NCBI RefSeq assembly: GCF_014023125.1
Contig: NZ_CP048914.1
Span: 1,082,698 to 1,146,697, forward strand
Source: Candidatus Xianfuyuplasma coldseepsis
GTDB lineage: Bacteria; Bacillota_I; Bacilli_A; Izemoplasmatales; Izemoplasmataceae
Length of the DNA stretch: 64,000 nucleotides
Reading direction: 5' to 3'
Shown piece by piece: positions 11,261 through 28,687 of the stretch (within the stretch, counting starts at the first letter, position 1; the number at the start of each line of letters is the position of its first letter). Position numbers and translations under genes: made by a program. Under the pieces are notes generated by a model. The model saw only the letters and a program-made list of their open reading frames with translations. It made no database searches and was not told the origin of the DNA.

Positions 11261-12910
11261 ATGAAACGAATTATGCTAGTAATTGTATTCGGAGTACTCA
11301 CGTTATTAGTCGCATGTGAAACCATTACTCCATCAGTTACTGAAACAGTTACCATCACCTATGAAACAAACGGTGGTACCTTAGGAAGCGATGCTACTTT
11401 GGAAGTAGACAAAGGGACTGCAATTAGTGAACCAACCGTTACCAAAGAAGGACATACTTTACTGGGATGGTACAGTGATTCGACATTTAATGTCGCATAT
11501 GATTTTGCGCAAGGGGTTCAAGGAAATATTACCATCTATGCCAAATGGCAACCGCTTGAACTGGTTGTTACGTATTATACGGATGCAGAGTATGACACGA
11601 TTATTACGTCGTACGGAGAGTCCTTTCCAACCACAGATGATCCTGTCGTCGAAGGATACCACTTTGATGGCTGGTACAGCGATCAAGAATTAACCACACC
11701 ATTTGAATTTACATCTGCAGTTGTCACGGACAACACAACATTGTATGGTAAGTTTACCATTGAAGAATATACCCTAACAATTATTAACATGGGCAATATT
11801 GTCAGTGAGACTACGTATACATATGGAGAACTTGTCGATATTCCCACAGATTTCACGATGGAAGGTTATATATTTAATGGTGTCTATGAGGAAGAACAAT
11901 TTATCAACCAAGTCATCTCGAATTTTGCCATGCCAGCGGATAATGTAACACTATACATTGAAATGGAAGAATTTAGTCAAGTTCTTACAATATATTTAGT
12001 ACCATTTCGTCCAGGAGAGGAACTTCTTGACATTTCTGAAGACTTAAAAACACTCATGTTGGCAGCTCTTGAGGATGCTGGTTCGTCCTATACTGATATT
12101 GAGTTCTATGTAGGGTCTACCTACGAAACCGTAGGTGAAGCATTATTAGTAGGAATTGCTGATGTCGCCTATTTACCTGCCACAACATATGTTATGTACC
12201 ATGATGTTGAATCCAGTCCGATTGAACCATTGGTTGCATTGACACGTATTGGATTGAATAAAGACTATGACGACGCGAATCTGTGGAATGATGGCATGCC
12301 GACGACGTCGGACTCTCAAGTTCAGGTTCCATATTACCGATCTCTAATTATTGCCGGACCAAGTGCTGCAGGACAAGCAGTTGCTGCCAAAGTCAATAGC
12401 GGTGCACCACTTGTTTGGGACGATGTCAAAGACTTAAACTGGTGTGTACGTAGTGTTACCTCAAGCAGTGGATATGTCTATCCCAATATGTGGCTCAATA
12501 CGAAATTTGGTAAAACCTATGATGATATAACCGGTTACGTTACAACAACTGCCGGATATGGAAACAGTATGAGTAGTTTAGCAGCCGAAATCTGTGACGT
12601 TGCAACATTCTACGCCGATGCACGTCGCGATTATGCAGACGAATGGGAAACCGATTATGGTAAAACCGATATTTGGACAGAAACCAACGTGATTGGTGTC
12701 AGTGCCCCAATTATGAATGATGTAATTGCCTATAATGCAGACAATCTTGATACCACAATTATCGAGATATTGGAAGAGTTCTTTGTGACTCTAGGGGATG
12801 ACCCCATGTATTGGCAATTATCTGGATTATTCTATAACGATGGATTTATACTTATTGATGATACGGACTATGATCCAGTCCGAGAAGCATTGGAGTTCTA
12901 TGGATATTAA
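11261..12910 (+). CDS. InlB-repeat lipoprotein fused to a PhnD-like solute-binding domain
   Basis: A 549-residue lipoprotein: lipobox LLVAC (Cys at about 19), then three InlB-type repeats at residues about 27-95, 96-165 and 166-235, with GHTLLGWYSD and GYHFDGWYSD signatures in the first two. From about 240 to the end it looks like a phosphonate/phosphate-type periplasmic-binding domain (PhnD superfamily): LTIYLVPFRPGEEL opening, GIADVAYLPATTYVM, and the long SGAPLVWDDVKDLNWCVRSVTSSSGYVYP segment, where such proteins bind an anion at a helix N-terminus. No transporter genes lie next to it. The ligand could be phosphonate, phosphite or another anion; the fold assignment is fair, the ligand a guess. 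Confidence 0.72.
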   Translation: MKRIMLVIVFGVLTLLVACETITPSVTETVTITYETNGGTLGSDATLEVDKGTAISEPTVTKEGHTLLGWYSDSTFNVAYDFAQGVQGNITIYAKWQPLELVVTYYTDAEYDTIITSYGESFPTTDDPVVEGYHFDGWYSDQELTTPFEFTSAVVTDNTTLYGKFTIEEYTLTIINMGNIVSETTYTYGELVDIPTDFTMEGYIFNGVYEEEQFINQVISNFAMPADNVTLYIEMEEFSQVLTIYLVPFRPGEELLDISEDLKTLMLAALEDAGSSYTDIEFYVGSTYETVGEALLVGIADVAYLPATTYVMYHDVESSPIEPLVALTRIGLNKDYDDANLWNDGMPTTSDSQVQVPYYRSLIIAGPSAAGQAVAAKVNSGAPLVWDDVKDLNWCVRSVTSSSGYVYPNMWLNTKFGKTYDDITGYVTTTAGYGNSMSSLAAEICDVATFYADARRDYADEWETDYGKTDIWTETNVIGVSAPIMNDVIAYNADNLDTTIIEILEEFFVTLGDDPMYWQLSGLFYNDGFILIDDTDYDPVREALEFYGY

Positions 12911-13459: not shown

Positions 13460-14884
13460 TTAGGATATCATTAAACCTACTTCGATATTGTCGTACTCCA
13501 AAGGAACCACAATATCGCCTTCTGGATTAATGAATCCCCACAACCCATCTTGAGCGACAGGTATTAAACCAAATATGGTAATTGTATATGCGTTGTCATA
13601 GGTAATGTCATTGATATAATCGCCATTGCGATTGACAAAACGATAGGTAATGTCTTCACCATCGGTAAGTTGAACACGATATATGCCATAATCTAAATTG
13701 GAACCAGGAATCACTATTCCATCGCCATCATAGAGGATGCTTTCATTCATATCCATAAAACCTTGAGTATCATTTTCTTCATCGATGAAGAATGCTAAAT
13801 CATCGTAAATATAGTTGATTTGCAGATCGCTGCTTAGGACTTGATTGCCTTGATTGTCATAGACATAATAGGTATTATTATTGAAAATTACATAATATTC
13901 CCCGCGACTATCAGCACGGTAGATTTCTTGTCCGAAAAATTCAAACACAGTCGTACCATCGTTTTTAATTAGCGAGACCAAACTGCCATTGAAGTAATGG
14001 GCATATCCAGCTTCACTAAAGTTTAATGGTAAAGCGTAATTAGGTTCCAGCACTTGATTCCCATAGAAATCCAAATATCCAAATTTCAGCCCTTCTTGGA
14101 ATAACACGAGGTTTCCATGTGTGGCAAAGGATAGAAACTCATATTGAAACGGAATCACAATGTTTCCAGCGGTGTCAATCGCACCATATAGATACTGATC
14201 ACCAATCGTTTTAGAAGCGATGGCAATATCACCGTTGTATGCGGTAATGTATTGATACTCCATTGGAATAACTAAATTTCCGGAAGTATCATAGACACCA
14301 AACGACCCATCTTTTGTAGCAACAATACGCTCACTACTAGGGTGTCCCATATTTACGTGATCAAAGGTTATGATCGTACTTCCATCGCGATCGATGAATC
14401 CGAGTTTCCCATCACTATTGGTGACACGGGCAACTCCATATTCACGGAAGTAAGCTTGGCCACTCATGTACTGGGGGCTGATGAGAACAATACCATCTAA
14501 ATTGGCAAACCCGATGAGGTTGTTTGCTGTATAGGAGAAGATGGTAGAAATGGATGTTTCTTCGGTCGCAGAAGGACAATCAAAGGTACTGTATCCATTG
14601 AGTGATGCATCATCAATTCGATTCACTAGTTCACCTTGGTAATCCAATATATCAATATGCTCGTCTTGGGCAAGATAATAAGTCCCACAGCGACGAATGT
14701 CGTCGTATTGCAAAGACACAATTGTTTCACCTTGCTGGTTGATTAAACCGATTTGATCATCTTTCTCAACAATGATTAGTAAATCCGATATATCAAGGGT
14801 ATTATCCACTTGTTGTTTATTCGGTTTACAAGCCACTAGTGTGACTACTAATAAACCGATGATTAGGTATCGTAAAGCTTTCAT
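13460..14884 (-). CDS. WG-repeat lipoprotein
   Basis: A 474-residue lipoprotein with lipobox VTLVAC (Cys at 19). The rest is made of WG/KWG-type repeats of about 40-50 residues, each beginning with a short G(L/F)(I/V)(N/D)..G..(V/I)(I/S)..QYD-like unit: QIGLINQQGETIVSLQYDDI, LGFIDRDGSTIITFDHVN, SFGVYDTSGNLVIPMEYQYI, LWGFINPEGDIVVPLEYDNI and others; about nine can be made out. WG repeats form beta-propeller-like extracellular or periplasmic domains of unknown role. It heads a two-gene operon with a small InlB lipoprotein. A TGATATAAT extended -10 lies about 40 bases upstream. Confidence 0.85.
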   Translation of the reverse strand: MKALRYLIIGLLVVTLVACKPNKQQVDNTLDISDLLIIVEKDDQIGLINQQGETIVSLQYDDIRRCGTYYLAQDEHIDILDYQGELVNRIDDASLNGYSTFDCPSATEETSISTIFSYTANNLIGFANLDGIVLISPQYMSGQAYFREYGVARVTNSDGKLGFIDRDGSTIITFDHVNMGHPSSERIVATKDGSFGVYDTSGNLVIPMEYQYITAYNGDIAIASKTIGDQYLYGAIDTAGNIVIPFQYEFLSFATHGNLVLFQEGLKFGYLDFYGNQVLEPNYALPLNFSEAGYAHYFNGSLVSLIKNDGTTVFEFFGQEIYRADSRGEYYVIFNNNTYYVYDNQGNQVLSSDLQINYIYDDLAFFIDEENDTQGFMDMNESILYDGDGIVIPGSNLDYGIYRVQLTDGEDITYRFVNRNGDYINDITYDNAYTITIFGLIPVAQDGLWGFINPEGDIVVPLEYDNIEVGLMIS

Positions 14885-15088: not shown

Positions 15089-16135
15089 ATGAAAAACATC
15101 CATGTAGTAATCTGGGGATTTGGCGCCATGGGTAAAGGAATGGCGGACATGTTATTAACGAAAAAAGGTGTTGAAATTACCGGTGTATGTGATCGTAATC
15201 CTGCGATTATAAATACCAGTATCTTTTCCCTATTAGAAGAACCCAAACGTAACCATCCGGATGTCATCATCACCGATGATATTACGACCTTATTAGATAA
15301 AGAGATCTGCGATATCGTATTACTTGCAACCGATAGTTTTACCAAAAATGCATTTCCGAAAATGAAACAAGTATTAGAAGCGGGAATCAACTGCATCTCC
15401 ACAGCCGAAGAAATGGCGTATCCAAAAGCACAGGAACCAGAACTAGCGAAGGAGTTGGATGCGATTGCCAAAGCCCATAACGTAACATTGTTGGGTACCG
15501 GAATCAATCCGGGATTCATTATGGATTTACTCGTTATTGCATTAAGTGGTACAATGAAACGTGTAGACCACATTGAAGCCAACCGTGTTAATAGCCTCAG
15601 TCCGTTCGGTCCGGCGGTTATGGAAGAACAAGGAGTGGGTATTACACTGGAAGAATTTCATCAGGGTGTTGACAGCAAAACCCTTGCAGGACATGTTGGA
15701 TTTGCCGAAAGCATTCAAATGATAGCAGATGCACTTGGAGTACCGCTAACTCGCTTCGAACAACAAATGAAACCAATCGTTACAACCGTAGACCGTAAGA
15801 GTCCTTATGGTGAAGCGAAAAAAGGACATGTAGCCGGTGTTAATATGACGGGACAAGGATATGTCGGTAATGACGTCTTTATCGATATGAAACACCCACA
15901 GCAAATCGAACCCGAAATGGAAGGAACCCATACCGGTGATTACATTACTATAAAGGGTGTACCGGAAATCAACATGGGAATCCAACCGGAAATTGACGGG
16001 GGTATTGGTACCATTGCTATGTGTGTCAATATGATACCCCACGTTCTAAACAGTAAACCAGGATTGAAAACAATGATTGATCTCCCGGTTCCCCGCGCTA
16101 TATTAGGAGATATGAGAGATCTTATTGATTCATAA
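15089..16135 (+). CDS. ord: 2,4-diaminopentanoate dehydrogenase
   Basis: The 348-residue protein is the NAD(P)-dependent enzyme that oxidatively deaminates 2,4-diaminopentanoate to 2-amino-4-oxopentanoate in ornithine oxidation. The Rossmann entry VIWGFGAMGKGMADMLL is at residues about 6-22, with dihydrodipicolinate-reductase-like body and conserved TGINPGFIMDLLVIAL near residue 140. The identity is strongly backed by ortA, ortB, oraS and oraE downstream. AAAGGAG lies 9 bases before the ATG at 15089. It is the first gene of a twelve-gene operon, separated by 26 bases from an ion-channel gene. NAD(P)H formed here is the reducing output of the pathway. Confidence 0.92.
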   Translation: MKNIHVVIWGFGAMGKGMADMLLTKKGVEITGVCDRNPAIINTSIFSLLEEPKRNHPDVIITDDITTLLDKEICDIVLLATDSFTKNAFPKMKQVLEAGINCISTAEEMAYPKAQEPELAKELDAIAKAHNVTLLGTGINPGFIMDLLVIALSGTMKRVDHIEANRVNSLSPFGPAVMEEQGVGITLEEFHQGVDSKTLAGHVGFAESIQMIADALGVPLTRFEQQMKPIVTTVDRKSPYGEAKKGHVAGVNMTGQGYVGNDVFIDMKHPQQIEPEMEGTHTGDYITIKGVPEINMGIQPEIDGGIGTIAMCVNMIPHVLNSKPGLKTMIDLPVPRAILGDMRDLIDS

Positions 16136-16161: not shown

Positions 16162-17781
16162 ATGGCTGAAACAAAAAAAACCACAACAAGTAGTACCAAA
16201 AAATCAACAACGACAAAGAAACCAAGTACACAAAAAAAATCAACATCCACAAAAAAATCGACAACAAGTACAAAAAAACCGAGTACGAGAAAGAAATCAA
16301 CTTCTTCAAGTACATCAAAAACAACGCGTACAAAAAAGCCAAAAGCTGAAACAGGTCGCATTAAAGACAAGTCCGAATTAACAACCTTAGAGACCTTAGA
16401 AGCTCAAGTTGAAGGTAAGGTAATACGTGAACGACAACCACTTGGGAAACTATTTTATCTGATCTTTAGTATCGTATTCTATGCGGTTGCCTATTTTTAT
16501 ATCAACACAACCGTATATGCGGGTAGTGATTGGATTGAAACGGCAATCTTTGCCTTTGCTGCATTGTTTATTGCCTTTGTATTGATGCTATTTAATGTGC
16601 ATATGTTGGTCTTTTACTTCTTTGTATTACCATTTAGACGTCTCTTTAAACAGGCGAAAATGGAAGCCCATAAAGAAATCTTCTTTAGTGTTGGAAAAAA
16701 CAAAGTCCAAACAACATTCAACAAATACAAATCCATCTTTACATTGGTCTTGTATTTCTTATTTGGTGGACTCCTAGTTGTTGCCTCAGTACTATCAAGC
16801 ATTCAAGATGGAGACGCCATTCTTCAAATTGTCTACAGTGCCTTTATCATCTTGATTATTTACCTAGTTGTGATTAACTCGTGGCAATTCTTATTCAATA
16901 TCATCCCTAGTATCTTAGAAAAAAGCATTGATGCCAAAAACGGCTATGTATTAACACTAAGCGCCGCTGTTATGGTGATCTATATCGTCTTTATCATCTT
17001 TGACATCACCTATTTAGCAGAGATTATGATCTTTGTTCTAATCATTGGATTTATTGCCTTATTAGGAGTGAATCTCAATATGATTGTCGGCGAAATAAAT
17101 ATCTTCCAAAACCTTCGGGGACGTAAAAGCAAAGCCGTTACCCGCGTCGTCTTTATCGTCTTCTTCGGATTCCATATTTATGTTGTATTATATGCTAGTG
17201 TTGTTGCCTATAGTATTTATAACTGGCAACCCGATGCTTATAATTTTACCGAAGTCCATTACGACATTACCGTCGATGATGAAATCTATTCCAGTGGAAC
17301 CCTTGTCGAACAAGTCTATGATATGAATGGCGATCCTGTCAATCAAGTCTATGATATGAATGGCGATCCCCTAACCATGGGAATCGATGAGAATGGGAAT
17401 ACCCTCACCATCTATGATGAACAAGGAAACATGTTATGGGATTTCTATGATTCATCCGGTGGTAATCTGTTCAACTTTACCGATACCAATGGTAACTTCA
17501 TCAATAACCCGTTCTTCTATGAAGGGCGTCTAGCGATAATCGATACCAAAGTTGAACGCCTTCATACCTATGGCGACTTCCTTTATTGGACTGTTATTAG
17601 TGTCTCAACCATCGGTTATGGCGACATCGCTCCGTCCACCGAATATCCGATTGCTCAGGCTTGGGGAGGATTCCTAGGGATCTACGGGTTAACATTCTTT
17701 GCCTTAAGTATTTCATTTGTATCAAACATCGCCATGGAAGGAATCAATTCTGTACGAGAGGAATCACGAAAACATGATTGA
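16162..17781 (+). CDS. K+-channel-like protein with Lys/Ser/Thr tail and turret repeats
   Basis: A 539-residue membrane protein. Residues 1-62 are almost only Lys, Ser, Thr and Pro, a low-complexity basic tail. Hydrophobic helices lie at about 97-118, 125-157, 192-214, 220-247, 262-306 (two), 326-352 and 500-523. The K+ selectivity filter STIGYGDIAP is at 482-491, between the last two, so the C-terminal part is a two-helix pore domain of the Ion_trans_2 type. The loop before the pore helix is enlarged to about 120 residues and holds six DxxG(D/N/G) units starting at 387, 398, 409, 419, 430 and 441. Its UGA stop overlaps the ortA start by eight bases, so it is translationally coupled to the catabolic genes. 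No known RCK or cyclic-nucleotide domain is present. Potassium selectivity is from the motif; the physiological role is unknown. Confidence 0.82.
   Translation: MAETKKTTTSSTKKSTTTKKPSTQKKSTSTKKSTTSTKKPSTRKKSTSSSTSKTTRTKKPKAETGRIKDKSELTTLETLEAQVEGKVIRERQPLGKLFYLIFSIVFYAVAYFYINTTVYAGSDWIETAIFAFAALFIAFVLMLFNVHMLVFYFFVLPFRRLFKQAKMEAHKEIFFSVGKNKVQTTFNKYKSIFTLVLYFLFGGLLVVASVLSSIQDGDAILQIVYSAFIILIIYLVVINSWQFLFNIIPSILEKSIDAKNGYVLTLSAAVMVIYIVFIIFDITYLAEIMIFVLIIGFIALLGVNLNMIVGEINIFQNLRGRKSKAVTRVVFIVFFGFHIYVVLYASVVAYSIYNWQPDAYNFTEVHYDITVDDEIYSSGTLVEQVYDMNGDPVNQVYDMNGDPLTMGIDENGNTLTIYDEQGNMLWDFYDSSGGNLFNFTDTNGNFINNPFFYEGRLAIIDTKVERLHTYGDFLYWTVISVSTIGYGDIAPSTEYPIAQAWGGFLGIYGLTFFALSISFVSNIAMEGINSVREESRKHD
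17311..17369 (+). repeat. 26 bp tandem-type duplication inside the channel gene
   Basis: Two identical 26-base copies (17311-17336 and 17344-17369) are spaced by 33 bases, that is 11 codons, and encode the first two DMNGDP units of the turret. Identity at DNA level points to a recent duplication. Confidence 0.85.
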
Positions 17782-18076
17782 TAAAGGAACCTATGTACGC
17801 ATTAGGCAGACCGTGCTACAACCACAAGAACGCTCAACCCATCTTCCCGAAGAAACCACCAAAGTCCCCTTTAAGATTTGGGTAAAAGGATATCTTCAAG
17901 AAGATGCGGATTTATTTGATATTGTTACCATTAAAACGCCCTTAGGACATACGTTCACAGGTCGTTTAAAAGAAGCAAATCCACCATATCGTCATACGTA
18001 TGGTGATTTTGTTCCTGAGATATTAAAAGTTCGTGAAATCATCCATACGGATCTGTGGGGTGATTCTCATGAATAA
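17774..18076 (+). CDS. ortA: 2-amino-4-oxopentanoate thiolase, alpha subunit
   Basis: A 100-residue protein matching OrtA in size and in position before ortB. OrtA and OrtB together cleave 2-amino-4-oxopentanoate with CoA to acetyl-CoA and D-alanine, the last step of anaerobic ornithine oxidation. Visible family features are the N-terminal GTYVRIRQTVLQPQERS and the TPLGHTFTGRLKEANPPYRHTYGDFVPEI block. The ATG at 17774 lies within the end of the channel gene (8-base overlap); a longer frame from 17717 would overlap it much further. The stop overlaps ortB by eight bases, indicating coupled synthesis of the two subunits. Confidence 0.9.
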   Translation: MIDKGTYVRIRQTVLQPQERSTHLPEETTKVPFKIWVKGYLQEDADLFDIVTIKTPLGHTFTGRLKEANPPYRHTYGDFVPEILKVREIIHTDLWGDSHE

Positions 18077-19451
18077 CACCTATGATGAATTAATGAAGCG
18101 TCGCAATGACATTATGAAAGCCAGTGTCGGTATTGATTATAACGACTACGAACAAGAAGGGATTGCCTTTGACTATGAAGCAATGATGCGTGATCAAGGC
18201 TATGACATTGCAACGATTCAAAAAATTCAACAGGAACACATGGTTGGCAACACACCGTTAGTCGAGTTGAAAAACATTACAAAGTATGCTCGTAAATACG
18301 CCAAACCAGGATATGGTGCCCGTATTTTTTTGAAGGATGAAGCCGCCAATTTAAGCGGTAGCTTTAAGGCACGTCGTGCCGCATTAGCGATTCACCAAGC
18401 AAAAAAACTAGGATACAAAGGTGTTATTGCTGCGACAAGTGGAAACTACGGTGCCGCCGTAGCTGCATTGGCAGCCAAAGAAGGACTCCATTGCATCATT
18501 ATCCAAGAAGCGTTTGATTCCAAGAATATGGCTCAACCAGAAATCCTTGAGAAAGCACGAAAATGTGAAGCCTTTGGAGCAGAAGTGATCCAATGCTCCG
18601 TCGGTCCGGAACTCTTTTATATGTTCTTAAAGTTATTGGATGAAACAGGATATTTTAATGCATCACTCTATTCTCCGTATGGCGTTAATGGAATTGAAAC
18701 ATTGGGTGTTGAAATTGCATCTGAAATCAAAGAACAAGTCGGTAAATACCCCGAAGCTGTTGTTGTCACTAATGCTGGTGGTGGAAATCTTACCGGTACC
18801 GCACGAGGCCTTAAAAAGGCCGGCGCAACATCTACTAAAGTAATCGGGGCAAGTGTGAACTTGTACGGTCTACATATGGCCAGTGATTATGATTTTAATC
18901 GAAAATCATTTACCACAGGACACACCGGTTTTGGAATCCCATTTGCAACCTATCCAGATCGTAGCGATGTACCACGTAGTGCTGCTCGCCCGTTGCGTTA
19001 TATGGACCGCTATGTCATGGTTAATCAAGGCACCGTATTCTTTTTAACAGAGGCGTTAGCCCAATTAGAAGGTATGGAACGAGGACCTGCTGGAAACACA
19101 TCCCTAGCAGCTGCATTTTGCCTTGCACAGGAAATGAAAGAGGATGAAATCATTGTGGTTCAAGAAACCGAATATACCGGAGCTGGAAAACACATTCTAC
19201 CACAATTATCATTTGCGAAGAAAAATGGTATTGAGATCCTGTTTGGAGATCCAACTAAAGAAATCCCTGGGACCAATATTATCTTTCCAAAGGATGGTTC
19301 GTTCATTCGTTATCAAGAAATTCGATTAGAAGACTTACATAAAACCTATTTAAAACGTTACAAAGATCAATCATTGAGCGAATTAGAACTGCAATATCTA
19401 GCAGATGAACTACGCTTAGATATCACACAAATACAAACATTACTACAATAG
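18069..19451 (+). CDS. ortB: 2-amino-4-oxopentanoate thiolase, beta subunit (PLP)
   Basis: A 460-residue PLP-dependent protein of the threonine-synthase/tryptophan-synthase-beta fold. The PLP lysine is in LSGSFKARRA (Lys100), with TSGNYGAAVAALA and NAGGGNLTGTARG as the phosphate- and substrate-binding Gly/Asn loops. With OrtA it makes acetyl-CoA and D-alanine. I placed the start at ATG 18069, overlapping ortA by 8 bases; an upstream ATG at 18033 adds twelve unlikely residues inside ortA. It is followed by oraS after ten bases that contain AGGAGGTG. Confidence 0.92.
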   Translation: MNNTYDELMKRRNDIMKASVGIDYNDYEQEGIAFDYEAMMRDQGYDIATIQKIQQEHMVGNTPLVELKNITKYARKYAKPGYGARIFLKDEAANLSGSFKARRAALAIHQAKKLGYKGVIAATSGNYGAAVAALAAKEGLHCIIIQEAFDSKNMAQPEILEKARKCEAFGAEVIQCSVGPELFYMFLKLLDETGYFNASLYSPYGVNGIETLGVEIASEIKEQVGKYPEAVVVTNAGGGNLTGTARGLKKAGATSTKVIGASVNLYGLHMASDYDFNRKSFTTGHTGFGIPFATYPDRSDVPRSAARPLRYMDRYVMVNQGTVFFLTEALAQLEGMERGPAGNTSLAAAFCLAQEMKEDEIIVVQETEYTGAGKHILPQLSFAKKNGIEILFGDPTKEIPGTNIIFPKDGSFIRYQEIRLEDLHKTYLKRYKDQSLSELELQYLADELRLDITQIQTLLQ

Positions 19452-19461
19452 GAGGTGCAGT

Positions 19462-19827
19462 ATGAAAGAACGTATCGATGACTTTGAGACAAGACGTGAA
19501 CATTTAAAACACATGTCCGATCAAGAACTCAAACAATACTTCTTACAACTCGCAGATAAAATTGTCGATCCCCTACTGGATTTGGCATATAAAAACACGT
19601 CCAAATCGATTGAACGAAGTATCCTACTTCGGATGGGATTCAATAGTTTAGAAGCGAAGACAATCGTTGACATTTTACATGAAAATAACCTGCTACGAAA
19701 AGGTAGTGGTCAATGCGTATATTTAGTATCAAAGAAGTTCAATGTTACTATTAGAAAAGCAGGAGAATTCATTGAAAATAATAAGGGAATTGAGTTCCTT
19801 TTGTCCCATTTTGAGGTGACATCATGA
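19462..19827 (+). CDS. oraS: D-ornithine 4,5-aminomutase, small subunit
   Basis: The 121-residue protein has the length and opening (RIDDFETRREHLKHMSDQELKQYFLQLADKIVDPLLDLAY) of OraS, the small subunit that forms the B12/PLP enzyme D-ornithine 4,5-aminomutase with OraE and converts D-ornithine to 2,4-diaminopentanoate. It includes the RSILLRMGFNSLEAKTIV segment typical of the family. AGGAGGTG lies six bases before the ATG. Its UGA stop overlaps the oraE start in an ATGA junction, matching equal production of the two subunits. Confidence 0.93.
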   Translation: MKERIDDFETRREHLKHMSDQELKQYFLQLADKIVDPLLDLAYKNTSKSIERSILLRMGFNSLEAKTIVDILHENNLLRKGSGQCVYLVSKKFNVTIRKAGEFIENNKGIEFLLSHFEVTS

Positions 19828-22031
19828 ACTTAAAACCGAATGAAAAGCTAAATATTCATGAAATCTTGAAGGATTTACGGCACTATCAACCACAAAAACG
19901 TGGATGGGTATGGCGCGACCAAACACCACAACAAATTCGAGACTTTACTTATGTCCAAGCAAGCCCATCGCTTCAAAATTATGTACCTTTACCCAGTGCG
20001 AGACATCTCGGAAATATCGATCCACAACCATCCGAAGTTATCACAACAGAAATAGCATCTGGACGATTTGAAGATGACATTCGTCGGATGCGTATGGCTG
20101 CCTATCATGGTGCTGATCACATTATGGTAATCCGTACTGCAGGGCAATCACACTTCGATGGGTTACTCGAAGGTACACCACAAGGTATTGGTGGTATTCC
20201 AATAACAAGAAAACAAGTTAGAGCCCAGCGCAGAGCATTAGATATCATCGAGGAGGAAGTCGGAAGACCGATAAACTATCATAGTTATGTGTCTGGTGTA
20301 GCAGGACCTGAAATCGCTTTGTTATTTGCTGAAGAGGGTGTAAATGGTGCTCATCAAGACCCTCAATATAACATATTATACCGCAATATCAACATGGTAC
20401 GTAGTTTTGTTGATGCTGCAGAGAGCAAACAGATTATGGCTTACGCCTCGATGGCTCAAATCGATGGGGCGCATAACGCAAATGCAACTGCAAGAGATGC
20501 TTGGAAAGTCATGCCTGAATTATTAGTGCAGCATATCATTAATTCTAAATTCAGTGAAAAAGTTGGAATTAAAAAAGAGAATATTTGTCTCTCGACCGTA
20601 CCTCCGGCAGCATCCCCAACACCGGATTTAAAATTGAATCTACCATATGCCGTTGCACTTAGAGAATTTTTAGGGGATTACAAGATGCGAGCACAGATGA
20701 ATACCAAATATATGGATTCATCGACACGTGAAGCAACCGTAACTCATGTTTTGAACTTGTTAATTACTCGATTGACAAGCGCAGATATCCAATCTACAAT
20801 CACCCCGGATGAAGGACGTAATGTTCCGTGGCATATTTACAACATCGAAGCACTCGATACCGCCAAACAAGCCCTCATTGGAATGGATGATTTACTAAGT
20901 ATGGTCAATCTTAAAAATGACGGTTACTTACAAGATAAAAAACGTGAGATTCAAGAGCGCGCCATCCTGATGATGGAAGAGATTATTGAGATGGGAGGAT
21001 ACTTCAATGCTGTAGAAGCTGGTATGTTTGTTGATAGTGGTGAATATCCCCAACGCAATGGTGATGGAATCTCTCGTGAAATCAATGGTGGGGTAGGTAA
21101 CGGTACTGTTATTGAACGGGATCAAGACTATATGGCACCTGTGACTGCACATTATGGATACAATAATATTGCGCAGTATGATAAAAATGCAATTGATGAT
21201 CCCAGTTCTTTAATTGACGGATGCACCTTGGAACATCCAGAAATGATCCAATTTATTGATGAACTAGATGAAACAGACAATGTCTATCTACGCCTTGAGA
21301 AGAGTGAAAAATACCGTACTGGAGGTCTTTTACGACCTGAAGTACAGTGGTTGGGTGATGGTACAGTTACCGTGGATTTATTCTTTGCAACCGATGAACG
21401 AACAGCCGAGGCTGCTGCACTTGTAACAGGTGAAAAGATGAACTTAACCGATGTTGAGGTAATCCATAAAGAAGTTCTGCATCCTTCAGAAGGTACCCGA
21501 ATCCAGATTAAGGGAACATTTAATGTTGATATTAAAATAGACGAACTCGAATTACCGGAAGTCGTTGAAGCACATTCTGAAGAGGATATTATACAGTATA
21601 TCAAAGATCATCCTATCAACGTTGTTGCTGGTACAGCTGGTAATGATGAACACAGTGTGGGTATTCGAGAAGTACTCGATATTAAACATGGTGGCATCGA
21701 AAAATACGGGATGAAGTACACTTATTTAGGAACTAGTGTACCAATCGAAAAATTTGTCGACGCTGCGATTGAAACACGTTCTCAAGTCATTATGATGTCC
21801 ACCATTATATCGCATGATGATGTCCATTATAAAAATATGAAAAAACTGCATAACTACGCTGTTGAAAAGGGTGTACGTGATCAGTTAATCTTAATCGCAG
21901 GAGGGACTCAGGTAACTCCTGAAATTGCACGAAACAGTCATATGGACCAAGGATTTGGTCGTGGCACAAAAGGTATTCATATAGCAAGTTTTATCATTAA
22001 TAAACACAAGGATATGATGAATGAAGATTGA
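19824..22031 (+). CDS. oraE: D-ornithine 4,5-aminomutase, large subunit (B12 and PLP)
   Basis: A 735-residue protein. The N-terminal part is a TIM-barrel PLP domain (DDIRRMRMAAYHGADHIMVIRTAGQSHFDG near residue 80). The C-terminal Rossmann domain carries the base-off cobalamin motif DEHSVG at 608-613 (DxHxxG, His610) and Lys621, which is 11 residues further on, exactly as His618 and Lys629 are spaced in the characterised clostridial enzyme. It needs adenosylcobalamin, PLP and OraS, and acts in the cytosol on D-ornithine. It overlaps mutL by eleven bases. The full set of catalytic features suggests an active enzyme. Confidence 0.95.
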   Translation: MNLKPNEKLNIHEILKDLRHYQPQKRGWVWRDQTPQQIRDFTYVQASPSLQNYVPLPSARHLGNIDPQPSEVITTEIASGRFEDDIRRMRMAAYHGADHIMVIRTAGQSHFDGLLEGTPQGIGGIPITRKQVRAQRRALDIIEEEVGRPINYHSYVSGVAGPEIALLFAEEGVNGAHQDPQYNILYRNINMVRSFVDAAESKQIMAYASMAQIDGAHNANATARDAWKVMPELLVQHIINSKFSEKVGIKKENICLSTVPPAASPTPDLKLNLPYAVALREFLGDYKMRAQMNTKYMDSSTREATVTHVLNLLITRLTSADIQSTITPDEGRNVPWHIYNIEALDTAKQALIGMDDLLSMVNLKNDGYLQDKKREIQERAILMMEEIIEMGGYFNAVEAGMFVDSGEYPQRNGDGISREINGGVGNGTVIERDQDYMAPVTAHYGYNNIAQYDKNAIDDPSSLIDGCTLEHPEMIQFIDELDETDNVYLRLEKSEKYRTGGLLRPEVQWLGDGTVTVDLFFATDERTAEAAALVTGEKMNLTDVEVIHKEVLHPSEGTRIQIKGTFNVDIKIDELELPEVVEAHSEEDIIQYIKDHPINVVAGTAGNDEHSVGIREVLDIKHGGIEKYGMKYTYLGTSVPIEKFVDAAIETRSQVIMMSTIISHDDVHYKNMKKLHNYAVEKGVRDQLILIAGGTQVTPEIARNSHMDQGFGRGTKGIHIASFIINKHKDMMNED

Positions 22032-23382
22032 TGTTTTAGTTGCTGAAATCGGTTCAACAACTACCATCGTGAATGCCTTTAATATCCACCAATCAAACCC
22101 TAGCTTTTTAGGACGTGGTGTTGCCAACACCACAGTCGCCTCAGATGTTACGATCGGTCTTAATTTAGCCATCAAAAACCTACAAAATAACCTTCACACA
22201 GACAGTATCGAATACAGTGAAATGTTTGCAACAAGTAGTGCTGCTGGAGGACTAAAAGTAACCGTCCATGGACTGGTTTACGAAATGACGGTTAGAGCCT
22301 CCAAAGAAGCTGCTTTAAACGCAGGAGCAAACATTCATTTAGTAACAGCTGGAAAGGTTAAACATCGTGATTTAAAGCGGATTAAAAACATTCAACCAAA
22401 CATCATTATTGTCGCTGGAGGGACCGATTATGGAGAGTATGAAACAGCACTCTATAACATTGAGAAAATCCTCCACTTGAATCTTGATATTCCAATCATT
22501 TATGCTGGAAATATTGATAATCATCATGACATTAAAGAGTTTTTTGCTAAGCATCATAAACAAGATCTCCTTAAAATTGTCGAAAATGTATATCCACGAG
22601 TTGATTATTTGAATATCTTACCGCTTCGAAAAGTCATTTACCAAACATTTGAAGAAAATATTATTCATGCACCAGGAATGAATCACATCCATGACATGGT
22701 TAATCAAAATATCATGCCTACTCCAGGTAGTGTAATGGAAGCGACAATGATGCTCTATGAACACTTAGGTAATGTCATGACAATCGATGTTGGTGGGGCT
22801 ACCACTGACATCCATTCTGTCGCAGAACCAAGCGATGAATACAAAGAATATCAAGAGGGTGAGCCGCGCTCAAAACGTACTGTTGAAGGTGATTTAGGAG
22901 TATTTATTAATCACAAAAATGTCGTTCGACTCTTTGAAGATAACACATTAAGTATTGCATCCGGACTATCAGAAGATACACTAAATAAACTACTAGAAAA
23001 CTATACATATATCCCCACAACGAAAGATCAAAAGACACTTGTTTACCAACTAACAAAAAAGTGTACTGAACTAGCGCTAGACCGCCATGTTGGTGATTTA
23101 AGACGAGTATTTACAAGCTCGGGTCAAAAGATTATACCAGAAGGAAAAGACCTAACCAAAGTTCAATTTGTTATCTTAACTGGAGGGGCATTGGTAAACT
23201 TAAGTCATACCGAAAAGATCATAGATGAGTATATTCGAACGAATCACCGAAAACTACTCCCAAACAAGAATGTAACGATTCTAAAAGACCATGATTACAT
23301 CATGGCATCGTTAGGAGTACTTTCATTGAAATATCCAGAGAAAAGTGTACGACTACTTAGAAAAACGTTAAGAATTGAGTGA
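22021..23382 (+). CDS. MutL/GlmL-like reactivating ATPase of the aminomutase
   Basis: A 453-residue actin-like ATPase of the MutL (glutamate mutase-associated) family. The N-terminus VLVAEIGSTTTIVNAF and the middle MTIDVGGATTDIHSV are the two phosphate-binding motifs; VILTGGALVNL is the adenosine motif. These proteins accompany B12-dependent mutases and probably reactivate them or load cobalamin; a gene of this type is part of the ornithine cluster in clostridia. The ATG at 22021 lies within the end of oraE. I leave the symbol empty because mutL also names the unrelated mismatch-repair gene. Confidence 0.88.
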   Translation: MKIDVLVAEIGSTTTIVNAFNIHQSNPSFLGRGVANTTVASDVTIGLNLAIKNLQNNLHTDSIEYSEMFATSSAAGGLKVTVHGLVYEMTVRASKEAALNAGANIHLVTAGKVKHRDLKRIKNIQPNIIIVAGGTDYGEYETALYNIEKILHLNLDIPIIYAGNIDNHHDIKEFFAKHHKQDLLKIVENVYPRVDYLNILPLRKVIYQTFEENIIHAPGMNHIHDMVNQNIMPTPGSVMEATMMLYEHLGNVMTIDVGGATTDIHSVAEPSDEYKEYQEGEPRSKRTVEGDLGVFINHKNVVRLFEDNTLSIASGLSEDTLNKLLENYTYIPTTKDQKTLVYQLTKKCTELALDRHVGDLRRVFTSSGQKIIPEGKDLTKVQFVILTGGALVNLSHTEKIIDEYIRTNHRKLLPNKNVTILKDHDYIMASLGVLSLKYPEKSVRLLRKTLRIE

Positions 23383-23387
23383 TATTC

Positions 23388-24446
23388 ATGTATCCAAGTA
23401 TTATCATTGATTTAAAAAAGTTCCGAAAAAATGTACAAGTTTTACGTGATCAATGTCATAAAAGAGATGTAAAAATGATGGCAGTGACCAAGGTTTTTTG
23501 TGCTGACCACAAACTCGTAAAAATTCTTAATGAAGAAAAAGTAGACTATATCGCTGACTCAAGAATTCAAAATTTAAAAGAGATTTCAACTGATATTCCC
23601 AAGGTTTTATTGCGGATTCCAAGTCACGGAGAAATCGAAGATGTGATTCAATATTCAGATATTTCTTTGAACTCTGAGCTATCAACAATTGAGTTATTAA
23701 ACTCAGAATCACATAAATATGGTACAAAACATGGTATTATACTAATGATTGACCTGGGTGATTTAAGAGAAGGTATTTTCGATGAAAATGAGGTATATAA
23801 TGTAGTTAAACGTGTATTAGAACTACCTCATATTGAACTACGGGGTATCGGAACTAACCTCACTTGCTATGGTGGTGTCATACCATCGATTGATAACATG
23901 AATCAGCTTCTTAAATACAAACAAAATATTGAAGAAAAATTCGATATTTCACTCGAAATTGTAAGTGGAGGAAACTCTTCAAGTATCGATATGCTACTAG
24001 AGGATAAGATACCATCAGGAATTAACAACCTTAGATTAGGAGAAAGCCTTGTATTAGGACGAGAAACAGCATATGGAAATTATATTGATGGCACCTACAA
24101 TGATGTATTCTGTCTCGAAGCTGATATCATTGAGCTTAAGGTTAAACCTACCGTTCCGATAGGTCAGATAGGTATGGACGCCTTCGGAAAGGTACCAACA
24201 TTTGAGGATAAAGGTAATCGACTTAGAGCTATCTTAGCGGTAGGTAAACAGGATGTAGATCATCGTGAACTGATACCGTTTGATACTATCAAACCGATAG
24301 GGTCTAGTAGTGATCATATCATTGTTGATGCTACTGAAGGGCATAATATATACGAAGTTGGTGGCATGATGCTATTTCGATTGACCTATAGTTCAATATT
24401 AAGCTTAATGACATCAAAATACGTGACGAGGTACTATGATGAATAG
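23388..24446 (+). CDS. orr: Ornithine racemase
   Basis: A 352-residue PLP enzyme of the alanine racemase-like N-terminal fold. The PLP lysine is in MAVTKVFCAD (Lys35), and the residues IELRGIGTNLTCYGG and SGGNSSSIDMLLEDKIPSGINNLRLGESLVLG match Orr, which converts L-ornithine to D-ornithine, the substrate of OraSE. I placed the start at ATG 23388; an upstream GTG at 23379 overlaps mutL. It overlaps alr by eleven bases. Visibly more AT-rich than arcABC and the ort genes. Confidence 0.88.
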   Translation: MYPSIIIDLKKFRKNVQVLRDQCHKRDVKMMAVTKVFCADHKLVKILNEEKVDYIADSRIQNLKEISTDIPKVLLRIPSHGEIEDVIQYSDISLNSELSTIELLNSESHKYGTKHGIILMIDLGDLREGIFDENEVYNVVKRVLELPHIELRGIGTNLTCYGGVIPSIDNMNQLLKYKQNIEEKFDISLEIVSGGNSSSIDMLLEDKIPSGINNLRLGESLVLGRETAYGNYIDGTYNDVFCLEADIIELKVKPTVPIGQIGMDAFGKVPTFEDKGNRLRAILAVGKQDVDHRELIPFDTIKPIGSSSDHIIVDATEGHNIYEVGGMMLFRLTYSSILSLMTSKYVTRYYDE

Positions 24447-25512
24447 ATATCGTGAAACGTATGCTGAGATTAATTTAAAGCACTTATACCACAACTTAAA
24501 ATCGATCCAAAAAATAGTACATCCAAAAACAGTGATCCCAGTAGTTAAGGCTGATGCGTATGGTCATGGCGCAGTAGAGGTTGTACGGTACTTGATTGAT
24601 AAAGGTATTGACTACTTTGCGGTAAGTCTCTTAGAAGAAGCCCTTGAACTGAGAAGAGTTTACCCTAATATTGAACTACTTTGCATGGGTATTATTGAAA
24701 ACGAAGGCTTACTCATTGCAAGTGAGAATAACATTACTGTTACAATGAGTAATTTCAATCAACTCCAAAATTGTCCAAAATTGTCAAAAACTCTAAAAAT
24801 TCATCTCAAAGTTGACACTGGTATGAATCGACTTGGATTTAAGTCGGATCATGATATTAAAGAAGTAATTGATGAAATTCAAAAAAATGAAAAATTTTTC
24901 CTTGAAGGAATTTTCACTCATTTTAGCACTGCTGATGAAAATATTTCATACTATAAAAAACAGTTGAATAGATTTGATGATATTTTCACGAATTTAAATT
25001 TCAAGTTCAAAATGATTCATGTTTCAAATTCGAGTTCTCAAATTCAATTTGAGAAGGATCTACCATGGACTACCCATACCCGACTCGGAATTAGCTTATA
25101 TGGTTTAACTTATATCGACCATATCAAATTTTTAAAGAACACATTTACCCTAAAAACTAAAATCAGTCAACTAAATAGACTGACCGCTGGTGAGTTTGTT
25201 GGTTATGGTGCAAGTTATGAATCTAGTGGTCAAGAAATTATTGCCGTCTTACCAATCGGATATGCTGATGGGTTTATCCGAAAGAATACGGGTGGTTTTG
25301 TTGAGATAAATCACAAACGTTATCCTATTGTTGGACGGATTTGTATGGACATGACTTTTGTTAAAGTTGACGAGTCTGTACAACTACACGATGAGGTTAT
25401 TTTGTTCGGTGGTTTAATTTCAATTGATGAGGTTGCTGATCGATTGGATACAATTAATTATGAAGTCATTTGTCAGATATCAAAACGTGTACCACGTATA
25501 TATAAAAAATAG
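24436..25512 (+). CDS. alr: Alanine racemase (or broad-specificity amino acid racemase)
   Basis: A 358-residue, full-length fold-type III racemase. VVKADAYGHGAVEVV carries the PLP lysine (Lys38), LKVDTGMNRLGF and THFSTADE follow, and GYGASYESSGQEIIAVLPIGYADGF carries the second catalytic Tyr region; VGRICMDMTFVKVD is the conserved C-terminal block. The family interconverts L- and D-alanine. In this operon it has an obvious job: OrtAB releases D-alanine, which Alr can return to L-alanine for transamination or protein synthesis. Peptidoglycan D-alanine supply is an alternative, and a basic-amino-acid racemase cannot be excluded by eye. A tandem ATG ATG start is at 24436. Confidence 0.88.
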   Translation: MMNRYRETYAEINLKHLYHNLKSIQKIVHPKTVIPVVKADAYGHGAVEVVRYLIDKGIDYFAVSLLEEALELRRVYPNIELLCMGIIENEGLLIASENNITVTMSNFNQLQNCPKLSKTLKIHLKVDTGMNRLGFKSDHDIKEVIDEIQKNEKFFLEGIFTHFSTADENISYYKKQLNRFDDIFTNLNFKFKMIHVSNSSSQIQFEKDLPWTTHTRLGISLYGLTYIDHIKFLKNTFTLKTKISQLNRLTAGEFVGYGASYESSGQEIIAVLPIGYADGFIRKNTGGFVEINHKRYPIVGRICMDMTFVKVDESVQLHDEVILFGGLISIDEVADRLDTINYEVICQISKRVPRIYKK

Positions 25513-25526
25513 AGAGGAAGTGACGT

Positions 25527-26750
25527 ATGAAACTACAAGTATTTTCAGAAATAGGACGTTTAAAAACAGTTCTATTACACAGGCCGGGGAAGGAACTAGA
25601 AAATCTGACTCCTGATTTACTCGAGAAGTTACTGTTTGATGATATTCCGTATTTAAAGGTAGCTCAAGAAGAACACGATGCCTTTGCACAAACATTGCGT
25701 GATAACGGTGTTGAAGTATTGTATATCAAGGATTTGGTTATTGAAGCATTGGATAATCATCCAGAAGTACGCCAGCACTTTATTAATCAATTTATCGAGG
25801 AATCCAATATCCTATCAAATACCGTAAAAAATGGTATTTATAAGTACTTAATTAAAATGGATAACTATGAGTTGGTCTCAACAATGATCGAAGGAATTCG
25901 CACTCATGATATTGAAGTTGATACTAGTTTTTCCATTTTGGATATGTTGGAAAGTGAGTATCCCTTCTATGCCGATCCTCTCCCGAATTTATTGTTCCAA
26001 CGAGATCCTTTTGCAACCATTGGGAACGGGCTTGCTATCAATAACATGATGACCGATGCTCGGACAAGGGAAACCCTCTTTAGCGAGTATATTTTTGCCT
26101 ATCATCCTCGTTTTGAAAATGCTACAATCCCCTGTTATAAGAAGAGAACTACGAGGTGGAAAAGCGAAGGGGGAGATGTCTTAGTTCTAAGTCCATCCAC
26201 CCTGGCTATCGGTATTAGTAAACGAACCGATCCTCGGGCCATTGAATCACTGGCTCGCGAGTTGTTTCATAAAGATGCGTCGTTTACGACAATCTTGGCA
26301 TTTAACATACCGAAATCTCGGGCGTTCATGCACCTTGATACCGTGTTTACCCAAGTCGATCATGGTACGTTTACCATTCACCCCGGGATTATGAAAGAGT
26401 TAACCATTTTTGAAATCACGAAGAACGGGAAGAAAGACATCCGTGTCGAAAAAGTCGTCACAACCTTGGAACATATATTGGAAAAACACTTACAGCGACC
26501 GATAAAACTAATCAATATTGGTGGAAACGATTTGATTACCGCAGGACGCGAACAATGGAATGATGGTGCCAACACACTCGCCATCGCACCGGGTGTTGTT
26601 ATTGTTTATTCACGAAATCACGTAACCAATGAACTTCTTCGTAAAGAAGGGATTAAAGTACTAGAAATTCCATCCAGTGAATTATCACGAGGAAGAGGGG
26701 GACCTCGCTGTATGTCCATGCCCCTCTTCCGTGAAGAAATAAAAGAATAA
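25527..26750 (+). CDS. arcA: Arginine deiminase
   Basis: A 407-residue enzyme that hydrolyses L-arginine to citrulline and ammonia. Conserved segments: [21 protein letters not shown] near the N-terminus, [42 protein letters not shown] with the catalytic His, and [13 protein letters not shown] with the nucleophilic Cys near residue 395. Length matches the family. Starts with ATG 25527 behind GAGAGGAAGTGACGT. It sits 14 bases after alr and ten before arcB, so it is in the same transcript as the ornithine genes. Confidence 0.96.
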
Positions 26751-26760
26751 GGAGACTCCT

Positions 26761-27780
26761 ATGAACTTACAACATCGTAATTTTATTACACTACTTGATT
26801 TCACTACAAAAGAAATTGAGTATCTTTTAGAATTATCAGCTACCTTAAAACAAGAAAAATACGACGGAATCGAACACAAAGTACTACCTAACAAAAACGT
26901 TGTATTACTCTTCCAAAAAGACTCCACAAGAACACGTTGTGCCTTTGAAGTTGGGGCATTAGACCTTGGCATGGGTGTCACCTACTTAGGACCAAACGGA
27001 AGTCAAATGAACAAAAAAGAATCCGTCAAAGATACCGCCCGAGTGCTGGGACGGATGTACGATGGAATAGAATTTCGTGGGTACAAACAAGAACACGTTG
27101 AACTCCTTGGTGAACACGCTGGGGTACCGGTTTGGAATGGATTAACCGATCAATACCATCCCACTCAAATCCTCGCTGATTTCTTAACCATCCAAGAACA
27201 TTTTGGACGTCTACAAGGAATCAAATTCGCCTACGTCGGTGACTCGCGCAACAACATGGGAAACAGTTTAATGATTGGGTCGGCAAAAATGGGGCTTCAC
27301 TTTACTGGGGTTGCACCAAAAGAACTATGGCCTGAACAAGCGCTAATTGATCAATGTCTAGAAATTGCCAAAGATACCGGCGCAACAATCACCTTCACCG
27401 AAGATAAAATGGAAGGAACCAAAGATGTTGATGTCATCTACACCGATGTCTGGGTATCGATGGGTGAACCCAAAGAAGTATGGAATGAACGAATCGCTCA
27501 ACTATCGCCCTATCAAGTGGATATGAGCACCTTGAAAAACGCATCGGATAAGGCCATTTTTATGCACTGTCTTCCCGCATTCCACGGTAAAGACACCGAT
27601 GTTGGTGCCCAAATCGCCAGTGACTTTGGAGACGTATATCCAACCGTGAAAAACGGTGAAATGGAAGTCACCGATGAAGTGATTGAATCCCCACAATCCG
27701 TCGTTTTCCAAGAAGCCGAAAACCGGATGCATACGATTAAAGCTGTGATGCTTGCTACCTTGCGTGATCACCATGAGTAG
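26761..27780 (+). CDS. arcB: Ornithine carbamoyltransferase (catabolic)
   Basis: A 339-residue carbamoyltransferase. STRTRCAFE is the carbamoyl-phosphate motif, HPTQILADF the second one, and HCLPAFHG the ornithine-side Cys motif. In the deiminase pathway it runs from citrulline and phosphate to ornithine and carbamoyl phosphate; its place between arcA and arcC indicates the catabolic direction, though sequence alone does not prove it. AAGGAGACTCCT is just before the ATG. It overlaps arcC by eight bases. Confidence 0.95.
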
Positions 27781-28687
27781 ATACGTTGTTAGTCTGGGTG
27801 GTAATGCATTAGGTAAAAACGCCGAAGAACAAAAACAACTTCTAAGGCAAGTCGCAAAACCGATTGTCGAATTAATCAAAGCTGGACACGAAGTCGTCAT
27901 TGCCCATGGCAATGGACCACAAGTAGGGATGATTAATCTCGCCTTTAGCGAAAGTTCCTCAACCCCCAACATGCCCTTCCCCGAATGTGGGGCAATGAGC
28001 CAAGGTTATATTGGCTTTCACATGCAAAATGCGATTGGGAACGAACTACACAAACAAGGAATTGAACAATCTATTGCGGCACTTGTTACGCAAGTAATCG
28101 TTGATAAAGACGATGAAGCATTTGATAACCCCCGTAAACCCATCGGTAGTTTTTATACCAAAGAAAAAGCTGATCAACTATCGGAAACCATGGGCTATAC
28201 GATGGTTGAAGATGCTGGTCGGGGATATCGACGCGTTGTCCCAAGTCCCATGCCGATTGACGTCAAGGAAAAGGAAATGGTAAAAACCTTACTCCATGAT
28301 GGACACATCGTCATTACCGTCGGTGGAGGAGGCATCCCTGTTATCAAACAAGATGGATTACTCCACGGTGTTGCTGCTGTTATTGATAAAGATAATGCTA
28401 GTGAGAAACTTGCGGAACTTATTGATGCCGATTACCTTGTAATCTTGACTGCTGTTGACAATGTCTACATCCATTTTGGAACAGAGAAACAAGAAGCCCT
28501 TCATCACGTTACAACGACACGTCTACAAAAACTGATCGAAGAAGGGCATTTCGCACCGGGTAGTATGCTACCAAAAATCAAAGCGACAACGCGCTTTACT
28601 TCGAGTGGTAAAACCGCAATCATCGCATCTTTGAACAATGCGAAAGAAGCCTTCGAATTGAAGGCAGGAACAATTATCACACAATAA
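27773..28687 (+). CDS. arcC: Carbamate kinase
   Basis: A 304-residue amino acid kinase-fold enzyme that makes ATP from carbamoyl phosphate and ADP, releasing CO2 and ammonia; this is the energy step of the deiminase pathway. Motifs: [16 protein letters not shown] at the N-terminus, [26 protein letters not shown], and [11 protein letters not shown] placed the start at ATG 27773, inside the end of arcB, consistent with coupling; a TTG frame from 27752 is less likely. It is the last gene of the operon, followed by a terminator. Confidence 0.95.

What the first reader, a model, noticed from the sequence alone, without database searches (positions are those of the whole stretch)
17320..17496. Six DxxG(D/N) repeats in the outer loop of the channel
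Units starting at residues 387, 398, 409, 419, 430 and 441 (DMNGD, DMNGD, DENGN, DEQGN, DSSGG, DTNGN) recur every 10-11 residues in a loop expected outside the cell just before the pore helix. They resemble Ca-binding or beta-hairpin repeats. The first two copies are identical over 26 bases of DNA, so the array is still changing in number. It could sense Ca2+ or polyamine-like cations at the pore mouth.
Basis: partly seen in the sequence, partly recalled or inferred. Interest (0 to 1): 0.7.

Follow-up and report, generated by a model that had tools for sequence, protein, structure and literature searches.

The report
Hairpin-repeat cap on ornithine-operon channel
A potassium-channel-like membrane protein, made from the gene set that ferments arginine and ornithine in a wall-less deep-sea bacterium, carries over its pore mouth a small domain of eight short beta-hairpin repeats whose number has stayed fixed while the sequence drifted; this fits a rigid outer cap better than a calcium sensor.

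Summary
The repeats are real. The loop before the pore helix holds six D-x-x-G turns at 10-11-residue spacing (none in 20,000 shuffles), and the 26-base identity of the first two is exact. The array is larger than reported: seven units, consensus [VF]YDxxGNxIxx, plus a closing FYxxGxL unit (residues 374-458). Copy number is not in flux: all 11 regular homologues have 7+1 units. Three relatives are irregular and one lacks the array. No fold in the PDB or a viral library matches.

The Ca2+ idea is not supported: one conserved carboxylate per unit (72%), and DxDxDG in 1 of 15 homologues. The host is an orphan protein of probably eight TM helices: a six-helix domain without known relatives, then a TxGYGD pore, the only Ion_trans_2 pore in the genome. 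It occurs in one Izemoplasma family and, in 14 of 16 genomes, directly adjoins ortA of the ornithine operon. Best reading: a fixed-size beta-hairpin outer cap on a K+/NH4+-type channel tied to arginine/ornithine fermentation. Fold and location are supported by computation; transport role and gating are inferred.

The parts
16162..17781 (+). gene of the 539-aa channel-type membrane protein
   Evidence: Ion_trans_2 at residues 467-524, 40.6 bits; only such pore in the genome
16162..16443 (+). K/T/S/P-rich N-terminal tail (residues 1-94), predicted cytosolic, length variable and nearly absent in L019, L053, L022
   Evidence: translation and homologues
16444..17130 (+). six predicted TM helices (residues 95-323), no voltage-sensor-like row of arginines; no PDB relative and no consistent Pfam match
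   Evidence: hydropathy and loop charges, AF2 helices at low confidence, no PDB match and no consistent Pfam match, found only in one family of the order
17131..17220 (+). S5-like helix (residues 324-353)
   Evidence: AF2 helix 230-259 of the trimmed protein; hydrophobic stretch
17221..17568 (+). extracellular S5-P segment (residues 354-469), net charge -18, ordered in the model
   Evidence: AF2 of the segment alone: mean pLDDT 89.5, array 91-97; charge
17281..17313 (+). repeat unit 1, EIYSSGTLVEQ (degenerate)
   Evidence: register from homologues
17314..17346 (+). repeat unit 2, VYDMNGDPVNQ
   Evidence: DNA near-duplicate of unit 3
17347..17379 (+). repeat unit 3, VYDMNGDPLTM
17380..17409 (+). 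repeat unit 4, GIDENGNTLT (10 residues, also 10 in L001)
17410..17442 (+). repeat unit 5, IYDEQGNMLWD
17443..17475 (+). repeat unit 6, FYDSSGGNLFN
17476..17508 (+). repeat unit 7, FTDTNGNFINN
17509..17535 (+). closing unit PFFYEGRLA (FYxxGxL in relatives)
17569..17625 (+). pore helix and selectivity filter, TIGYGD at 17608-17625
   Evidence: G-Y-G-D invariant in 15 homologues
17638..17778 (+). S6-like helix and C-terminus
15089..16135 (+). ord, 2,4-diaminopentanoate dehydrogenase, 26 bases upstream
   Evidence: DAP_DH_C 315 bits
17774..18076 (+). ortA; its ATG at 17774 overlaps the channel's last codons by 8 bases
   Evidence: OrtA 116 bits, overlap
18033..28687 (+). rest of the operon: ortB, oraS, oraE, GlmL-like Or-4, orr, alr, arcA, ornithine carbamoyltransferase, arcC

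Best explanation
The array is a compact, fixed-size beta-hairpin-repeat domain (seven hairpin units and a closing unit) inserted between S5 and the pore helix of an orphan channel with probably eight TM helices. With four subunits it would stand as an outer cap, or crown, around the pore mouth. It probably works as a rigid acidic vestibule: it shapes access to a K+/NH4+-type filter and limits blockers, rather than binding Ca2+. The channel is translated with the arginine/ornithine fermentation enzymes and probably adjusts K+ or NH4+ balance and membrane potential when that pathway, which releases ammonium, is running. Shown by computation: repeat, fixed number, predicted order, location, operon position. 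Inferred: tetramer, ion, gating, cap function.
For: Repeats beyond chance. The number 7+1 is kept in 11 of 11 regular homologues, although the segment is only 24-35% identical to the window's beyond its nearest relative, at 60%. Strongest constraints are structural: hydrophobic at unit positions 1, 2 and 9 (94-98%), Gly 6 (79%), Asp 3 (72%). AF2 orders the array at pLDDT 91-97 alone and 77-88 in the whole protein, with bridges closing each DxxGN turn and longer first and last strands (14-19, 103-112) that could form a stalk. Outside location by loop charges. Filter G-Y-G-D invariant in 15 of 15; pore profile matches KCNQ, SthK and TASK-2 chains. Directly beside ortA in 14 of 16 genomes, with ord immediately upstream in all 13 examined. 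Stop/start overlap with ortA. Five genomes without it have ord followed directly by ortA.
Against: One homologue (L022, G012) keeps filter and operon place but has no array, so the cap is dispensable there. Two channel-bearing genomes (G008, G027) have the gene away from the ornithine operon, and G027 shows no OrtA. Other exported proteins of the window are also acidic (-9 to -13 per 100 residues, against -15.5 for the loop), so charge alone is weak evidence. AF2 of the TM part is poor (pTM 0.35), no tetramer was modelled, and repeat arrays can be predicted with too much confidence. No PDB or BFVD fold match.
Confidence: 0.5

Rival explanations
1. The array is a divalent-cation (Ca2+) sensor: DxxG(D/N) turns bind Ca2+ and gate the pore.
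For: Many Asp and Asn in turns; strongly acidic segment; the same-genus relative L013 carries DDDGDG, an EF-type DxDxDG motif.
Against: Only one preferred carboxylate per unit, replaced in 28% of units by non-acidic residues; other acidic positions reach at most 36%. No DxDxDG in 14 of 15 homologues, the window's included. Asp before a DxxG turn is also usual as a hairpin cap, as in RHS/YD repeats (own knowledge).
Confidence: 0.1
2. The array is a ligand-binding ectodomain for a cationic amino acid or polyamine (arginine, ornithine), so that the channel reports substrate to the fermentation pathway.
For: Place in the arginine/ornithine operon; acidic exposed surface.
Against: No conserved pocket: beyond structural positions few residues are conserved, mean column identity 42% against 72% for the TM domain. 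L022 keeps the operon place without the array.
Confidence: 0.15
3. The array is a surface tether or protein-protein contact (for example to other cells, lipoproteins or a partner subunit), with no part in conduction.
For: Related hairpin repeats (RHS/YD, WG) often serve as scaffolds or contact surfaces (own knowledge); the organism is wall-less (PMC8397711), so the domain would be directly exposed.
Against: Position directly between S5 and the pore helix, and fixed size, are more natural for a pore cap; no other gene in the family's genomes shares the domain above weak scores.
Confidence: 0.15
4. The array is a low-constraint insertion that expands and contracts by slippage and has no function.
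For: Units 2 and 3 are near-identical at DNA level; irregular arrays in L013, L010, L021 and absence in L022.
Against: Number 7+1 fixed in 11 regular homologues despite large drift; structural positions conserved at 94-98%; confidently ordered.
Confidence: 0.08

Closest known systems
RHS/YD repeats (Pfam PF05593; TcB-TcC, teneurin, T6SS Rhs cores)
   Same: YDxxG(N/R) turn followed by a hydrophobic strand; each YD repeat is a pair of strands joined by a hairpin (PMC6425310); the most recurrent, though weak, matches in Pfam and the best in the PDB are RHS proteins.
   Different: All below the curated cut-off (17.9 against 22 bits); strict 11-residue unit; only eight units, so no shell; sits in a channel; no significant Foldseek match.
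Tetrameric K+ channels with S5-P-S6 pore (SthK, KCNQ, MthK, Kir, K2P; Pfam Ion_trans_2)
   Same: TxGYGD filter, pore helix, S6; significant profile match of the pore.
   Different: Six preceding TM helices with no voltage-sensor arginines and no known relative; 116-residue repeat domain in the turret position; operon with ornithine fermentation.
Extracellular caps and turrets of known K+ channels (K2P helical cap, Kir turret)
   Same: Lie between the outer helix and the pore helix and shape the external mouth; added acidic residues at the Kir2.2 mouth collect K+ and lessen Mg2+ block (PMC4211740).
   Different: Here the cap is a beta-hairpin-repeat array; the K2P cap is helical (own knowledge).
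WG repeats, choline-binding and glucan-binding hairpin repeats
   Same: Short hairpins with DxxG or NG turns in series (own knowledge).
   Different: Units of about 20-35 residues; no significant sequence or fold match here.

Membership tests
Tetrameric cation channel pore (Ion_trans_2, PF07885) | Profile match of outer helix/pore helix/filter/inner helix over the curated cut-off | tested here: met
   40.6 bits against 22.5
Tetrameric cation channel pore (Ion_trans_2, PF07885) | TxGYGD-type K+ selectivity filter | tested here: met
   TIGYGD at 17608-17625; G-Y-G-D invariant in 15 homologues
Tetrameric cation channel pore (Ion_trans_2, PF07885) | Tetramer conducting K+ | not testable with these tools
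   no complex modelled, no assay
Six-TM voltage-gated channel | S4 with regularly spaced Arg/Lys; VSD homology | tested here: not met
   no Arg/Lys row in the N-terminal helices (alignment); no PDB match of that half
RHS/YD repeat (PF05593) | Profile score over the curated cut-off | tested here: not met
   17.9 and 17.8 against 22 bits; weak matches in 5 of 14 homologues
RHS/YD repeat (PF05593) | Many repeats forming a spiral beta shell with Rhs core domain | tested here: not met
   only eight units in about 85 residues; no fold match
EF-hand-type or TSP3-type Ca2+ repeats | DxDxDG loop or equivalent carboxylate cluster | tested here: not met
   absent in the window and in 13 of 14 other homologues; present only in L013
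RTX Ca2+ repeats | GGxGxDxUx nonapeptides | tested here: not met
   unit is 11 residues, [VF]YDxxGNxIxx
WG repeat (PF14903) | Profile match | tested here: not met
   no match in the loop even at E<=10

The most novel reading that the evidence does not exclude
A previously undescribed channel family of probably eight TM helices, confined to one Izemoplasma family, that is a built-in part of the arginine/ornithine fermentation operon and carries over its pore a beta-hairpin-repeat cap of constant size with no solved counterpart; the cap filters or gates NH4+, K+ or a cationic amino acid for the pathway.
Probability: 0.3. Interest if true: 0.75.

Novelty: new variant of a known kind. Interest (0 to 1): 0.5.

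Why it matters
If right, it adds a kind of K+-channel-type protein with an unknown six-helix front half and a repeat-built outer cap, and it ties a channel to amino-acid (Stickland-type) fermentation, where a text search for channel plus ornithine-pathway enzymes gave no paper. Homologues with and without the cap, and operons with and without the channel, give ready natural comparisons, so cap function and the ion question are directly testable.

Tried and rejected
Ca2+ binding by motif scan and unit statistics: not supported. Copy-number variation in relatives: rejected for regular arrays. Membership in RHS repeats: under cut-off. Fold identity by Foldseek on PDB and BFVD and by VIA-align: nothing significant; the whole-protein model was too weak in the TM part to be useful. 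A second copy of the domain in the own genome or family: only hits near threshold in large other frames. Relatives of the channel on plasmids, or of the array in phages: none. Relatives outside the family in the class or phylum samples: none. The Lys-rich tail and upstream WG lipoprotein were noted but not pursued. Electrostatic attraction as main proof: weakened by the finding that other exported proteins of the window are acidic too.

Full report
What was checked. The gene at 16162-17781(+) encodes 539 residues. Neither is chance: the longest chain of D..G at 10-11 spacing is six, while 20,000 shuffles gave at most four, once; lag-11 self-identity is 27 against a mean shuffle maximum of 11.6, reached in 0 of 2,000.

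Where it is. The own-genome length (1,958,905 bp) equals that of Candidatus Xianfuyuplasma coldseepsis zrk13, the first cultured Izemoplasma, a wall-less deep-sea organism (PMC8397711); the identification rests on that equality. Pfam finds only Ion_trans_2 at residues 467-524, and this is the only such pore in the genome. A profile of the homologues matches only the pore of known K+ channels in the PDB; the front half matches no PDB chain, and its Pfam matches are scattered single-member hits. Hydropathy and loop charges give six helices, then S5, pore and S6, with positive loops inside and the repeat segment (net -6 to -27 over homologues) outside. There is no voltage-sensor-like arginine row in the alignment.

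The array. Aligning homologues showed the true register: seven units of consensus [VF]YDxxGNxIxx and a closing FYxxGxL unit. The units were split by eye along the alignment and checked by script. In 11 of 11 regular homologues the count is 7+1, with single units of 10, 12 or 15 residues. Conserved are the hydrophobic positions 1, 2 and 9 (94-98%), Gly 6 (79%) and Asp 3 (72%). Sequence identity of the segment to the window's is only 24-35% beyond the nearest relative. Three homologues (L010, L013, L021) are irregular, and L022 has a 36-residue loop without the array. L022 is nested among array-bearing sequences in a midpoint-rooted tree (support 88/87, long branch), so loss is likelier than primary absence. 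The nearest relative (L001) has the same number but its units 2 and 3 are not alike (at most 58% DNA identity between any two units), so the window's identity is local homogenisation, not growth.

Structure. AlphaFold2 on the segment alone with 14 homologues gives mean pLDDT 89.5 and 91-97 through the array. In the whole protein the array is the best-predicted part (77-88), while the TM part is poor (pTM 0.35). Secondary structure shows isolated bridges at both sides of each DxxGN turn and longer first and last strands, read here as hairpins on a two-stranded stalk; coordinates were not inspected. Foldseek and VIA-align found no PDB match, and BFVD none. By sequence the nearest, sub-threshold, are RHS/YD repeats, whose units are strand pairs joined by a hairpin (PMC6425310).

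Surroundings. The order is ord - channel - ortA - ortB - oraS - oraE - GlmL-like - orr - alr - arcA - OTC - arcC, that is arginine deiminase plus oxidative ornithine fermentation. The ortA start overlaps the channel's end by 8 bases. The family occurs in 16 of 49 genomes of one taxonomic family, in none of 41 others of the order, and in no genome outside that family in samples of the class and phylum. In 14 of 16 genomes it directly adjoins ortA, with ord immediately upstream in all 13 examined. Five channel-free genomes have ord followed directly by ortA. G008 and G027 keep the channel elsewhere.

Mechanism. Fixed unit number, structural conservation and position argue for a rigid outer cap. 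Acidic residues at an external K+-channel mouth gather K+ and lessen Mg2+ block in Kir2.2 (PMC4211740), so an acidic vestibule is a reasonable function. Other exported proteins of the window are also acidic, so this step stays inference. The pathway releases ammonium at arginine deiminase, carbamate kinase and 2,4-diaminopentanoate dehydrogenase (established biochemistry), so K+/NH4+ balance is the likeliest reason for the operon link; nothing here tests it.

Verdict. Observation confirmed and extended. The beta-hairpin reading is supported; Ca2+ sensing and changing copy number are not. The larger point is an orphan operon-bound channel family with a repeat-built outer cap.

Noticed in passing
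16162-17781: The channel sits inside the arginine/ornithine fermentation operon, between ord and ortA, in most genomes that have it, and is the only Ion_trans_2 pore in the genome.
   Followed up: yes
16444-17130: Six-helix N-terminal half with motifs SWQYLFNIIPxILDKSIDAKNGFILTLS and LLGVNLNMIVGEINIFQNL has no PDB relative and no consistent Pfam match.
   Followed up: partly
16162-16443: Lys/Thr/Ser/Pro-rich tail of about 90 residues, of variable length in homologues and nearly absent in L019, L053, L022.
   Followed up: no
L013:1708-2103: Same-genus relative has an irregular array with about 18-residue units and a DDDGDG (EF-type) motif, the only DxDxDG in the family.
   Followed up: partly
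13460-14884: Divergent lipoprotein with WG beta repeats next to the operon; a second WG protein lies elsewhere in the genome.
   Followed up: no
11261-12910: Protein combining List_Bact_rpt (internalin-type) repeats with a PhnD-like phosphonate-binding domain.
   Followed up: no
L049:4995-6521 and L002:212-1726: Two genomes (G027, G008) keep the channel, with its array, away from the ornithine operon; G027 has no detectable OrtA.
   Followed up: partly
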